Below are positions 46,635 to 52,293 of a stretch of 64,000 nt of DNA, one piece after another (the first letter of the stretch is position 1; each line of letters starts with the position of its first letter). The DNA is taken from the NCBI GenBank assembly GCA_016195805.1, contig JACPYT010000007.1, positions 1 to 64,000 on the forward strand, given 5' to 3'. Below the pieces are notes generated by a model that did not search any database, was not told the DNA's origin, and was given only the letters and a program-made list of their open reading frames with translations. This stretch comes from Hydrogenophilales bacterium (GTDB lineage Bacteria; Pseudomonadota; Gammaproteobacteria; Burkholderiales; Thiobacillaceae). A program made the position numbers and the translations under genes.

Positions 46635-48521
46635 TTATCCCCAGCCTGCCGCGACGGCCATCCGGTAGGTGACGAACGAGGCCAAGTAGGCCAGTGCAAA
46701 GAGGTAACCGGCCATGATCAGCGGCATGGTCCAGCCGCCGGTTTCGCGCTTGACGGTGGCGAGCGTGGCCAGGCACTGTGGCGCGAAGACAAACCAGGCC
46801 AGCAGCGACAAGCCGGTGGCGAGGCTCCAGCTGTGGGCGATGAGCGGGCTGAGTGCGCCTGCGGTGTCGTTGCCGGTGGCCGACAGCGCATACACGGTGC
46901 CGAGCGCGCTCACCACGACTTCGCGTGCGGCCATGCCGGGCACCAGCGAGATGCTGATCTGCCAGTTGAAGCCGATGGGCTCGAACACGACGGCGAGCGC
47001 ACGCCCCAGCATGCCGGCGAAGCTGTACTCGATCGGCGCGCCGGTCGCGCCTGCCGGCGGCGCGGGAAAGCTGGCGAGAAACCACAGCAGGACGGTGAGC
47101 GCGAGGATGATGCCGCCGACGCGCCGCAGGAATATCTTCACCCGCTGCCACAGGCCGATGGCGATGTTGCGTAGGCGCGGCAGGTGGTAGATCGGCAGTT
47201 CCATCATCAGCGGGTGCATGAGCTTGCGCGCGGTGAAACGCTTGAGCAGCCAGGCGACGACCAGCGCGCCGACGATGCCGGCCACGTAGAGGCAGAACAG
47301 CACCAGACCCTGCAATTCCAGTCCGCCCCAGATCGTGCGCTGCGGGATGAAGGCGCCGATGAGCAGCGCATACACCGGCAGCCGCGCCGAGCAGGTCATC
47401 ATCGGGGCGATCATGATGGTGACCAGGCGGTCGCGCGTGTTGGTGATGGTGCGCGCGGCCATGATGCCGGGGATTGCGCAGGCGAAGCTCGACAGCAGCG
47501 GGATGAACGAGCGCCCGGACAGGCCGACGCCGCCCATCAGGCGGTCGAGCAGGAAGGCCGCGCGGGGCAGGTAGCCGGATTCCTCCAGCACCAGGATGAA
47601 GAAAAACAGGATGATGATCTGCGGCAGGAACACGACCACGCCGCCGGCACCGGCGATCACGCCGTCTACCAGAAGGCTTTGCAGCCAGCCGTTCGGCAAC
47701 AGGGCGGCGACGCTGTCGCCCAGCCAGTGGGTGGCGCTCTCGATCCAGTTCATCGGCGTCTCGGCCCAGGCGAACACCGCCTGGAAAATCAGGAACAGGA
47801 TCACCGCCAGCAGCGGCGGGCCGGCCAGCGGATGCAGCACCACGCGGTCGAGGCGATCGCTGGCAAGGTGCGGAACCGCCTTGTCGAGGCCCATGCCTTG
47901 CAGGATGCGGCGTACCGTCTCGTGGTCGGCTTCGGTATTGTCGGCGGCGGACGCGCCATTGCCGATGGGGGCGGTCCGTTTCCAGTTGTCCGGCCGGTCG
48001 AGCAGGGTGAGCAGCGCGGCGGCGCCGTCGGCATTCACCGCGACGGTATTGACGACGGGCAGGCCGAGTGCGGTCGACAAGGCTGCACCGTCGACCCGGA
48101 TGCCGCGCTCTGCAGCGAGATCGGTCATGTTGAGCGCCACCACGCAGGGCAGCCCCAGGCGTTTGACCGCCAGCACCAGCCGCAGGTTGCGCCGCAGGTT
48201 GGTGGCGTCGACCACGCACACCACCAGATCGGGACGCTTCTCGCCTTCCGCATGACCGGTGAGCACGTCGCAGGTCACCTTTTCGTCGGGCGAACGCGGA
48301 TGCAGGCTGTAGGTGCCGGGCAGGTCGAGCACGCGCAAATGTTTGCCGGCCGGGGTAACGAGCTTGCCTTCCTTGCGCTCGACCGTGACGCCGGCGTAGT
48401 TGGCGACCTTCTGGTGACTGCCGGTGAGTCGGTTGAAGAGCGCGGTCTTGCCGCAATTGGGGTTGCCTACCAGCGCGACCAGCGGTCCGCCGCGATGCAC
48501 ATGGACGATGGCCTGCTTCAT
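46635..48521 (-). CDS. feoB: ferrous iron transport protein B
   Basis: 628 residues. N-terminal G protein with G1 GNPNCGKT (19-26), DLPGTYSL and NMTD, a helical GDI region, then the transporter core with two Gate motifs (GYLPRAAFLLDR and the later CLATLATVKRETGGW). Shorter than E. coli FeoB (773) because the C-terminal tail is missing, common in this group. ATGA overlap with feoA. Imports Fe2+ across the inner membrane. Confidence 0.96.
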   Translation of the reverse strand: MKQAIVHVHRGGPLVALVGNPNCGKTALFNRLTGSHQKVANYAGVTVERKEGKLVTPAGKHLRVLDLPGTYSLHPRSPDEKVTCDVLTGHAEGEKRPDLVVCVVDATNLRRNLRLVLAVKRLGLPCVVALNMTDLAAERGIRVDGAALSTALGLPVVNTVAVNADGAAALLTLLDRPDNWKRTAPIGNGASAADNTEADHETVRRILQGMGLDKAVPHLASDRLDRVVLHPLAGPPLLAVILFLIFQAVFAWAETPMNWIESATHWLGDSVAALLPNGWLQSLLVDGVIAGAGGVVVFLPQIIILFFFILVLEESGYLPRAAFLLDRLMGGVGLSGRSFIPLLSSFACAIPGIMAARTITNTRDRLVTIMIAPMMTCSARLPVYALLIGAFIPQRTIWGGLELQGLVLFCLYVAGIVGALVVAWLLKRFTARKLMHPLMMELPIYHLPRLRNIAIGLWQRVKIFLRRVGGIILALTVLLWFLASFPAPPAGATGAPIEYSFAGMLGRALAVVFEPIGFNWQISISLVPGMAAREVVVSALGTVYALSATGNDTAGALSPLIAHSWSLATGLSLLAWFVFAPQCLATLATVKRETGGWTMPLIMAGYLFALAYLASFVTYRMAVAAGWG

Positions 48522-48787
48522 GTTGCTGATCCGTCAGCCGCCATATGCTCGGTCGCCACCTGCACGCAGGCAGCCTCGACGCGCCGCAGCGCAAACGTGG
48601 AAGAGCCCACCCGCACCACCAGCGGGTCGCCCCCCGGCAGGGCACGCGTCATCACCATCACCTGCTCGCCGGGAAGGAAGCCGATCTCCTCCAGCCACGC
48701 GTGCCATTCCGGGGCGTCGGCGGGGGGCGCGACCTGGGTGACGGTGCAGGCCTGGTGGTCGGGGAGCTGGTCGAGGGTGAGCGTCAT
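48518..48787 (-). CDS. feoA: ferrous iron transport protein A
   Basis: 89 residues, SH3-like FeoA domain (LEEIGFLPGEQVMVMTRALPGGDPLVVRVGSSTFALRR). Small cytoplasmic partner needed for FeoB uptake. Start ATG 48787 lies inside the end of the upstream membrane gene (four-base overlap). Confidence 0.93.
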   Translation of the reverse strand: MTLTLDQLPDHQACTVTQVAPPADAPEWHAWLEEIGFLPGEQVMVMTRALPGGDPLVVRVGSSTFALRRVEAACVQVATEHMAADGSAT

Positions 48788-49311
48788 GAGCTGGCTTTTA
48801 TGCGGGCTGGCGGATTGTACGACGGGGCGGCGACATGGCGCTGCTGCGGGTGCTGCGGCTGATTGACGCGGGGCAGCGCGCGGCGGCGTCCCCGCCGGAT
48901 GTGCAGCCCGAGCAGGAGCGGCAGCGCGAGCCCAGCGATCCAGTGCAGCGGCGGCAGCCAGGCGGCGTTGTCGTCGGAGGAGAAATAATACAGTGCGTAG
49001 CCGGTGGCGGCGAGCCAGATGGTGAGCGCGAGCATCGGCAGGCCGCTGCGGTGGTTCCGGCGGCGGTTCCAGGCGAGCCGGATGTGATTGGGCGCGAGCG
49101 AGCCGGCAAGCGCCAGCGCCAGCATGGCCATCAGCCCGTGCAGGCGCAGCCACCAGGCTTCGAGGGGATGCGCTTCGGGGCCGAATTCGCCGTCCATCCG
49201 CAAGAAATAATGAAACGCCAGCCACAGTGCGCCGCTCAGCCAGAGCAGCGCGAAGCCGGCATAGAGCGACTTCTTGTGACGCGGGCCGAGACGGATGATG
49301 GCCTTGCTCAT
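48784..49311 (-). CDS. four-helix membrane protein with conserved histidines, putative haem or redox protein
   Basis: 175 residues, helices at about 16-36, 54-73, 92-111 and 121-139. His34, His58, His123 and His137 lie in or at the ends of helices, the arrangement of b-haem cytochrome-like proteins (DUF4405/cytochrome b561 style). A basic tail (HIRRGRRR) is cytoplasmic. Placed between apbE and feoA with overlaps at both ends. Proposed to move electrons to the exported flavoprotein; haem binding is inference. Confidence 0.7.
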   Translation of the reverse strand: MSKAIIRLGPRHKKSLYAGFALLWLSGALWLAFHYFLRMDGEFGPEAHPLEAWWLRLHGLMAMLALALAGSLAPNHIRLAWNRRRNHRSGLPMLALTIWLAATGYALYYFSSDDNAAWLPPLHWIAGLALPLLLGLHIRRGRRRALPRVNQPQHPQQRHVAAPSYNPPARIKASS

Positions 49312-52019: not shown

Positions 52020-52226
52020 TTACTTGGTCAGAATCAGCTTGTTGTTTCGGGTGAGGCGTAGCCGGTAGATTTCACCGTGATGGTTAATCAGGATTTCCTG
52101 GCTCCCCTGGAACAAAAGGCTGGCAGGAATGCCGACCTGCGAAGGGGGCTGCTGCCCGGCCCCGGCTGGAAGCCGGGAGCCAGGCGTTTGGGTGGGACGA
52201 CCAGGGCGCATGGGTTCGGAGGGCAT
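52020..52226 (-). CDS. hemP: HemP/HmuP-like small protein
   Basis: 68 residues; the C-terminal ~25 residues [18 protein letters not shown] and the NKLILTK end match the HemP/HmuP family. HmuP in alpha- and betaproteobacteria activates haem-uptake genes under iron limitation. Here no haem receptor is adjacent; it heads an iron operon. The start is uncertain (ATG 52226, ATG 52211 or TTG 52250). Confidence 0.85.
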
Positions 52227-52265
52227 GGTTTTCGGATGGAACGCGATCAAGTTTTGATTAAGAGA

Positions 52266-52293
52266 ATAATAACGATTCTCATTAACATGTCAA
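52266..52293 (-). promoter_or_regulatory. hemP operon promoter with Fur box in the spacer
   Basis: On the minus strand TTGACA (52293-52288), 16 bases, TATTAT (52271-52266). The 19-mer at 52286-52268, GTTAATGAGAATCGTTATT, matches the Fur consensus at 15 of 19 positions and fills the spacer, so iron-bound Fur would block polymerase. Confidence 0.85.

What the first reader, a model, noticed from the sequence alone, without database searches (positions are those of the whole stretch)
46635..52293. Fur-controlled operon joining HemP, an outer-membrane barrel, an ApbE-flavinylated exported protein, a His-rich membrane protein and FeoAB
Eight genes run in one direction behind one strong promoter. 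The last five (FMN-binding protein, ApbE, membrane protein, FeoA, FeoB) are joined by four successive 4-base overlaps, so their products are probably made together. The exported protein has the SGAT flavinylation site (Thr159), the next gene encodes the enzyme that would modify it, and the next a four-helix protein with His34/58/123/137 suited to haem. Electrons could pass from the membrane haem to the covalent flavin, reduce Fe3+ in the periplasm, and FeoB import the Fe2+. This joint reductase-transporter layout is not one I can match to a named system.
Basis: partly seen in the sequence, partly recalled or inferred. Interest (0 to 1): 0.78.

Follow-up and report, generated by a model that had tools for sequence, protein, structure and literature searches.

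The report
Flavin iron-reductase and importer operon
A sulfur bacterium carries one iron-regulated gene block that probably makes a small electron chain to convert rust-form iron to its soluble form and an importer to bring it in; close relatives pair the same chain with other iron importers, and the enzyme expected to fit the chain's flavin looks unlike its known relatives.

Summary
The operon is real: eight co-directional genes, four successive 4-base overlaps, a strong promoter overlapped by a Fur-box-like site. Of 23 same-family loci with a strong FMN_bind match, 18 carry a co-directional adjacent iron transporter: FeoAB, a divergent FeoB-FeoA pair on either side, or FTR1. The membrane protein has four invariant histidines (49 of 49), but they are His58/76/123/137, not His34, placed as in a two-haem cytochrome b. 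The barrel is DUF6662; all 20 of 300 sampled genomes of the order that have it carry it beside this FMN_bind gene. In 12 genomes it is the only ApbE beside the only FMN_bind protein. So how this carrier gets its flavin is open. Outside a few families the module often has no iron gene nearby (15 of 48 strong loci of the order sample have one). Flavinylation-linked iron assimilation is already known (eLife 2021); this is a new variant.

The parts
52266..52293 (-). sigma-70-like promoter TTGACA-16-TATTAT of the operon
   Evidence: 11 of 12 matches
52267..52281 (.). Fur-box-like site overlapping the -10
   Evidence: 3 mismatches; 2 sites in 64 kb, 0.27 expected; 11 of 14; reached by 0.5% of 200 shuffles of the promoter region
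52020..52250 (-). HemP-family small protein (start uncertain: TTG at 52250 or ATG at 52226)
   Evidence: PF10636, 62.9 bits, cut-off 25
51775..51981 (-). 68-aa ORF without a Pfam match; homologues near HemP in L001, L113, L114
50752..51699 (-). predicted exported outer-membrane beta-barrel, DUF6662, ends in Phe
   Evidence: PF20367, 499 bits, cut-off 27; beside FMN_bind in 20 of 20 genomes that have it
50195..50740 (-). FMN_bind protein with a signal-peptide-like start, flavinylation motif SGATLS, Thr159
   Evidence: PF04205, 44 bits, cut-off 22; T159 in 90 of 90
49308..50198 (-). ApbE of a separate clade: no visible signal peptide, Pro218 in place of the general-base His
   Evidence: PF02424, 143 bits
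48784..49311 (-). four-helix membrane protein, likely two-haem cytochrome b (His58/123 and His76/137)
   Evidence: His invariant in 49 of 49; four helices in a weak model; 9 and 7 of 19 relatives match cytochrome b561 and DUF4405
48518..48787 (-). FeoA
   Evidence: PF04023, 53.4 bits, cut-off 23
46635..48521 (-). FeoB, the only clear FeoB in the genome
   Evidence: TIGR00437, 501 bits, cut-off 315.65; (185.8 bits, next match 63.4)
46484..46498 (.). second Fur-box-like site, before bfd
46220..46432 (-). Bfd, bacterioferritin-associated ferredoxin (neighbour, own promoter-like site)
   Evidence: PF04324, 46.7 bits, cut-off 26
45596..46075 (-). Bfr, bacterioferritin-type ferritin (neighbour)
   Evidence: PF00210, 118 bits, cut-off 24.5

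Best explanation
The operon encodes an assimilatory iron-reduction and import line, switched on by iron starvation. Iron or an iron chelate enters through the DUF6662 barrel (inferred). The four-helix protein carries two b haems stacked across the inner membrane (His76/His137 near the cytoplasm, His58/His123 near the periplasm; inferred from invariant His, topology and family) and passes electrons, most likely from quinol, to the covalent FMN on Thr159 of the periplasmic FMN_bind protein. The FMN reduces Fe3+ to Fe2+, FeoB imports it, and Bfd/Bfr handle storage. Shown here: gene order and overlaps, Fur-like sites, motif and His invariance, and repeated pairing with iron transporters. Inferred: haem, flavin, electron path, substrate. 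Open: how the FMN is attached, because the operon's ApbE has neither a visible export signal nor the usual catalytic His.
For: (1) 18 of 23 family loci with a strong FMN_bind match have a co-directional adjacent iron transporter: FeoAB after the membrane protein in 8, a divergent FeoB-FeoA pair after it in 2, that kind of pair before the barrel in 7, FTR1 before the barrel in 1; two more have FTR1 divergently oriented. Exchange of different transporters around one module argues for shared function. (2) The ApbE tree puts the loci with a downstream Feo pair and those with an upstream one in two clades (100/100 and 100/99), so the link probably arose at least twice. (3) Fur-like sites: 16 of 23 promoters, 0.49 expected. 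(4) Four invariant His in 49 of 49 homologues; 9 of 19 relatives match cytochrome b561, 7 of 19 DUF4405. (5) Thr159 in 90 of 90. (6) In more distant FMN_bind loci a PepSY protein stands in place of this membrane protein, twice beside FTR1 (L089, L091). (7) Precedents: flavinylation clusters with VIT1 or FTR1/P19 (PMC8238504, passages); apbE::Tn5 in Bifidobacterium breve impaired growth only under ferrous chelators (PMC5449479, passages).
Against: Iron genes lie within six genes of only 15 of 48 strong FMN_bind loci of the order sample, and many HemP-less loci show no good Fur-like site. 3 of 23 family loci show no transporter. The ApbE lacks features expected of an extracytosolic flavin transferase. 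No cytoplasmic electron donor is encoded. The model of the membrane protein is weak (pLDDT 61) and its Foldseek hits are not significant (best E 0.8). No experiment exists.
Confidence: 0.72

Rival explanations
1. A general periplasmic electron-transfer module (FMN_bind-ApbE-cytochrome-barrel) that serves another acceptor, with feoAB merely co-regulated in one lineage, for example because a flavin carrier replaces iron-rich cytochromes when iron is short.
For: Only 15 of 48 strong loci of the order sample have an iron gene within six genes, and 5 of 48 have a MauG-type peroxidase.
Against: Different transporters were placed beside it, probably at least twice; HemP, Bfd, Bfr and TonB-ExbBD genes recur in several lineages; the membrane protein itself would need haem.
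Confidence: 0.15
2. The module acts on imported siderophores or chelates: a TonB-dependent receptor brings them in, the FMN protein strips the iron reductively, and Feo is one of several exits.
For: ExbB, ExbD and a TonB-dependent receptor lie near the module in L099, L100, L101, L103, L104 and L130, with TonB in L100, L103, L104 and L130 and a PKHD-type dioxygenase in L099, L101 and L130 (named). Such a receptor-dioxygenase pair supports iron uptake in Caulobacter (PMC11870441, passages).
Against: The window's own operon has a 315-aa barrel and no receptor; none of the seven loci with FeoB-FeoA upstream shows such a receptor in the stretch read (sought with one receptor only).
Confidence: 0.08
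3. The operon's ApbE is not a flavin transferase; the FMN_bind protein is modified by another ApbE or holds FMN non-covalently. (This can hold together with the best explanation.)
For: No visible signal peptide; general-base His missing in 58-60 of 64; the window's genome has a second ApbE with a lipobox-like N-terminus.
Against: In 13 of 55 genomes the operon's ApbE is the only one, and in 12 of these its neighbour is the only FMN_bind protein; the ADAL-motif Asp is kept in 64 of 64; for the H257G mutant of the V. cholerae enzyme the review reports a decrease, not a loss (PMC12052999, passages).
Confidence: 0.25

Closest known systems
PepSY-like, MsrQ-like and P19/FTR1 flavinylation-associated iron assimilation clusters (Meheust et al. 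2021, PMC8238504; abstract and passages)
   Same: FMN_bind or DUF2271 substrate, apbE, often a transmembrane electron-transfer protein, an iron transporter, Fur control in some
   Different: here the transporter is FeoAB, the membrane protein is neither PepSY nor MsrQ by Pfam, DUF6662 is present, and the ApbE shows no signal peptide and lacks the catalytic His
DUF4405 / FezC flavinylation- and ferrosome-associated cytochromes (Huang et al. 2024, PMC11334425; passages)
   Same: membrane protein with four conserved His, beside apbE; weak sequence kinship
   Different: DUF4405 is described with six transmembrane helices, this has four in a weak model; the window protein scores under the DUF4405 and b561 cut-offs
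Caulobacter HiuABC and FeoAB pathway (PMC12424826; passages)
   Same: Fur-regulated inner-membrane protein with two predicted haem sites, proposed to feed Fe2+ to FeoAB
   Different: it is PepSY/FoxB-like, acts on siderophores, lies in a three-gene operon without feoAB, and no flavinylated partner is described in the passages read
FeoAB ferrous iron uptake
   Same: FeoA and FeoB over curated cut-offs
   Different: joined by 4-base overlaps to a putative ferric reductase module

Membership tests
FMN_bind flavinylated carrier (PF04205) | domain match over the curated cut-off | tested here: met
   44 bits, cut-off 22
FMN_bind flavinylated carrier (PF04205) | [S/T]GA[S/T] motif with the FMN-bearing Thr | tested here: met
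   SGAT, Thr159; T in 90 of 90 homologues
FMN_bind flavinylated carrier (PF04205) | covalent FMN | not testable with these tools
   needs in-gel fluorescence or mass spectrometry
ApbE flavin transferase (PF02424) | domain match over the curated cut-off | tested here: met
   143 bits, cut-off 25.6
ApbE flavin transferase (PF02424) | general-base His (V. cholerae His257) | tested here: not met
   aligned to Pro218 (6nxi has H and 6nxj G at that place); His in 4 of 64 or 6 of 64 operon ApbEs, in 49 of 50 others, the 50th being a fragment
ApbE flavin transferase (PF02424) | conserved Asp of the ADAL motif | tested here: met
   Asp245, 64 of 64
extracytosolic ApbE | signal peptide or lipobox | tested here: not met
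   GT motif 3-23 residues from the called start in 55 of 69 rows, 14 not measured; in-frame stop 10-23 aa before it in 10 of 13 single-ApbE genomes, no hydrophobic stretch in the other 3. Judged by hydrophobicity, not by SignalP
DUF4405 cytochrome (PF14358) | domain match over the curated cut-off | tested here: not met
   16.2 bits, cut-off 26.7; 7 of 19 relatives match at E 0.01
DUF4405 cytochrome (PF14358) | four conserved His | tested here: met
   49 of 49 at each of four positions
DUF4405 cytochrome (PF14358) | six transmembrane helices | tested here: not met
   four helices in the model (low confidence)
prokaryotic cytochrome b561 (PF01292) | domain match over the curated cut-off | tested here: not met
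   20.4 bits, cut-off 30.1; best relative E 3.3e-9
PepSY-like or MsrQ-like flavinylation cluster | PF03929/PF16357 or PF01794 protein in the cluster | tested here: not met
   no such match among the operon's eight proteins at E 1
FeoAB | FeoB equivalog and FeoA domain | tested here: met
   TIGR00437 501 bits, cut-off 315.65; PF04023 53.4 bits, cut-off 23
DUF6662 (PF20367) | domain match over the curated cut-off | tested here: met
   499 bits, cut-off 27

The most novel reading that the evidence does not exclude
A flavinylate-then-export line: a cytoplasmic ApbE clade, most of it without the usual catalytic His, attaches FMN to the carrier before or while it is exported, where FAD is plentiful, and the carrier then works in the periplasm between a two-haem four-helix cytochrome and an iron importer. 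This would break the rule that periplasmic flavoproteins get their covalent FMN in the periplasm.
Probability: 0.27. Interest if true: 0.8.

Novelty: new variant of a known kind. Interest (0 to 1): 0.6.

Why it matters
FeoB needs Fe2+, and which enzyme supplies it in a given periplasm is often unknown (from my own knowledge of the field); this operon names a candidate reductase in the same transcript. It gives a testable context to a domain of unknown function (DUF6662). It also exposes an ApbE clade that lacks a visible export signal and mostly lacks the general-base His, yet is, in 12 genomes, the only ApbE beside the only FMN_bind protein; this makes the question of where and how periplasmic flavoproteins are flavinylated directly testable.

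Tried and rejected
Fold of the membrane protein: AlphaFold2 with six sequences gave pLDDT 61; Foldseek against PDB gave nothing at E 0.001 or less; two of the top three hits were designed two-haem bundles at E 0.8 and 0.99, not used as evidence. A profile search of PDB sequences gave one chance match at E 4.6. Fold of DUF6662: pLDDT 36, not searched. The first FeoA profile was contaminated by an out-of-frame extension and was replaced by phmmer with the 89-aa FeoA. One gene cluster (c0) merged ExbB with a porin through a wrong start in L088; reread by hand and by Pfam. The gene caller missed the membrane protein in L040 and L046, which the ORF scan shows, so undercounts it. A looser Fur scan over all 65 loci of the first set gave weak best sites in many HemP-less loci. 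Considered and dropped: chance operon; haem uptake by HemP as the main function (no receptor in the operon).

Literature: no paper of the library holds flavinylated + ApbE + FeoB or DUF6662. At least two of ApbE/FeoB/FMN-binding: 22 papers; two of FeoA/FMN-binding/ApbE/hemP: 34, of which 20 were listed; flavinylat + ferrous iron + Fur: 15, 12 listed. Of the four listed that hold FeoB with ApbE or FMN-binding I read passages (PMC5609570, PMC9431491, PMC5701242, PMC2864759): none describes such an operon. The other listed papers I saw only as listings, apart from those cited elsewhere in this report with 'passages'.
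Full report
What is there. Pfam names them HemP, (no match), DUF6662, FMN_bind, ApbE, (no match over a cut-off), FeoA, FeoB; TIGR00437 confirms FeoB. The promoter and an overlapping Fur-like site are at 52266-52293. The only other Fur-like site with at most 3 mismatches in the 64 kb stands before bfd. 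The genome (2.96 Mb, 18 contigs) has one clear FeoB (185.8 bits; the next of 12 matches 63.4), two FMN_bind and two ApbE genes. Relatives found in genome contigs include a Thiobacillus, a Hydrogenophilales bacterium and a Sulfuriferula, so the host is probably a Thiobacillus-like bacterium (inference).

How far the module reaches. A profile of the FMN_bind protein (A1) matched 55 of 300 genomes of the order and 28 of 117 of the family, the window's own genome included in both. I fetched 60 of the 63 other places (left out: G239 and two fragments of G224), and all 23 family loci with a strong match (the window, L039). Left out of the family set were one fragment at a contig end (G302) and four weak hits (G129, G325, G326, G401). 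Some of the 23 are cut by a contig end, and in L130 the FMN_bind gene is broken. The membrane protein was found by profile in 49 of the first 65 loci. A profile of it (A3) matched 10 of 369 genomes drawn from the class, own genome included.

The iron link. Of the 23 family loci, 18 carry a co-directional adjacent iron transporter: FeoAB after the membrane protein in 8 (window, L039, L098, L099, L100, L102, L104, L130), a divergent FeoB-FeoA pair after it in 2 (L101, L105), that kind of pair between HemP or another small gene and the barrel in 7 (L106, L107, L108, L109, L111, L113, L114; in L107 the FeoB is split), and FTR1 before the barrel in 1 (L115, with one other gene between). Two have FTR1 divergently oriented (L116, L117) and three none (L103, L110, L112). 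L098-L101 are the contigs of L001, L003, L002 and L004 (same lengths) and are counted once. The pair in L101 was confirmed as FeoB and FeoA on L004; its FeoB is 43% identical to the window's over the GTPase part and 27% over the rest. In the ApbE tree the loci with a downstream Feo pair fall in a clade of 10 (100/100; it also holds L103, without a transporter) and those with an upstream one in a clade of 8 (100/99; it also holds L115). The second lies in a set of 20 (99/95) whose 12 other members come from other families and show no transporter within six genes, so the link probably arose at least twice. Further out in FMN_bind kinship, FTR1 stands with the FMN_bind gene and either this membrane protein (L087, FTR1 by similarity) or a PepSY protein (L089, L091, both by Pfam). 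Against this, only 15 of 48 strong loci of the order sample have any of HemP, Bfd, Bfr, Feo, FTR1, TonB, ExbB, ExbD or the receptor within six genes; I had no matched random control for this count. The iron role is therefore well supported for this family and a few neighbours, not for the module everywhere.

Fur. In 23 promoters (22 HemP promoters including the window's, and the window's bfd) 16 hold a site of at least 11 of 14 to TGATAATNATTATCA; shuffles give 0.49. They include near relatives, so they are not independent events, and HemP genes that my gene caller missed were not tested.

The membrane protein. His58, His76, His123 and His137 are each H in 49 of 49 sequences; Gly27, Gly70, Leu107 and Tyr109 are the other fully invariant positions; His34 is 43 of 49. 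The model has helices 10-36, 49-82, 84-110 and 119-145. Basic residues flank the N-terminus, the helix 2-3 loop and the C-terminus, acidic ones the other two loops, so both ends should be inside; His58 and His123 then lie near the periplasm and His76 and His137 near the cytoplasm, the plan of a two-haem cytochrome b (inference). Of 19 diverse members 9 match cytochrome b561 and 7 DUF4405 at E 0.01, the window protein under both cut-offs. DUF4405 and FezC were reported to bind haem b (PMC11334425, passages).

DUF6662. The Pfam model matched 20 of the same 300 genomes, and in all 20 the match lies beside the FMN_bind match (compared by coordinates; divergently oriented in G118). Of the 48 strong order loci 16 have a second kind of porin, 5 of them besides DUF6662; one relative of that porin matches PF07396, another has no Pfam match.

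The ApbE. The 64 distinct operon ApbEs form one side of a branch (100/99) against 19 ApbEs from elsewhere in such genomes. At the position of the V. cholerae general base His257 (its role from PMC12052999, passages; in the alignment structure 6nxi has H and 6nxj G there), 49 of 50 other ApbEs have His and the 50th is a fragment (all 49 non-operon matches plus the window genome's second ApbE). Operon ApbEs have His in 4 of 64 by one alignment and 6 of 64 by another; Pro is commonest (35-37), and the window has Pro218. The alignment is gapped just before this place in the shortest members, so single rows are less sure than the trend. The Ser before it (58 S, 6 T) and the ADAL Asp (64 of 64) are kept. 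I see no signal peptide in the operon ApbEs: in 55 of 69 rows (four of them duplicates) the GT motif at the start of the domain lies 3-23 residues from the called start and nothing before it is strongly hydrophobic; 14 rows were not measured, because the start was called at or after the motif, the motif varies, or the gene is fused (L130). This is not unique: 35 of 50 other ApbEs have a clearly hydrophobic stretch before the domain and several of the rest (for example L140, L141) look leaderless too. In 13 of 55 genomes examined the operon's ApbE is the only PF02424 protein (9 with one match, 4 with two fragments of the same gene; completeness 91-100%). In 10 of these 13 an in-frame stop lies 10-23 residues before the GT motif, which leaves no room for a signal peptide, and in the other 3 the upstream frame is not hydrophobic. 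In 12 of the 13 the neighbour is also the only FMN_bind protein. Two of the 13 (G225, G076) keep a His. FMN_bind proteins of the module begin with a hydrophobic stretch; a strict AxA-site pattern is met in 53 of 90, some gene starts being miscalled. The genome of the window has a second ApbE with a lipobox-like N-terminus, which could do the work here, but not in those 13 genomes. The review notes that a cytoplasmic ApbE serves a soluble fumarate reductase in Klebsiella, that periplasmic location was needed for function in an early study, and that seven residues suffice as a tag (PMC12052999, passages).

Mechanism and comparison. The best reading is an assimilatory ferric reductase coupled to FeoB. 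It works like the PepSY- and MsrQ-type flavinylation clusters with VIT1 and the P19/FTR1 clusters (PMC8238504, abstract and passages) but meets neither definition. In Caulobacter a Fur-regulated PepSY protein is proposed to feed FeoAB (PMC12424826, passages). So the principle is known; the FeoAB operon, the DUF6662 partner, the four-helix cytochrome and above all the odd ApbE are what is new, as far as the searches go.

Noticed in passing
window 52341-53300 (-): A His-rich cation-diffusion-facilitator-like protein (HAHGHGIHHAHSH... N-terminus) ends just upstream of the operon's promoter; family judged by eye, not searched.
   Followed up: no
L130 7001-8308: In G361 the FMN_bind gene lacks about 100 bases and its first part runs in frame into ApbE (435-aa ORF); a decayed gene or an assembly error. 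FeoAB still follows.
   Followed up: partly
L002 5783-6557, L004 970-1901: DUF6662 genes split by a frame change in two metagenome-assembled genomes.
   Followed up: no
L110, L112: Two FMN_bind genes in tandem before ApbE (genus g137).
   Followed up: no
L060, L073, L075, L078, L081: A MauG-type di-haem peroxidase and a porin stand before FMN_bind, hinting at another use of the module; L060 also has HemP, Bfd and FeoAB within about 8 kb, the other four no iron gene within six genes.
   Followed up: partly
L099, L101, L102, L130: A PKHD-type 2-oxoglutarate dioxygenase lies near the module, in L099, L101 and L130 right after a TonB-dependent receptor; such a pair (CciT-CciO) supports iron uptake in Caulobacter (PMC11870441, passages).
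   Followed up: partly
L064, L065, L069, L072: The membrane-protein gene comes before FMN_bind instead of after ApbE; L072 and the related L061 keep the ApbE histidine.
   Followed up: partly
window 51775-51981 (-): 68-aa ORF with a hydrophobic start and a Cys-x-Cys, between HemP and the barrel; seen in only four loci.
   Followed up: partly
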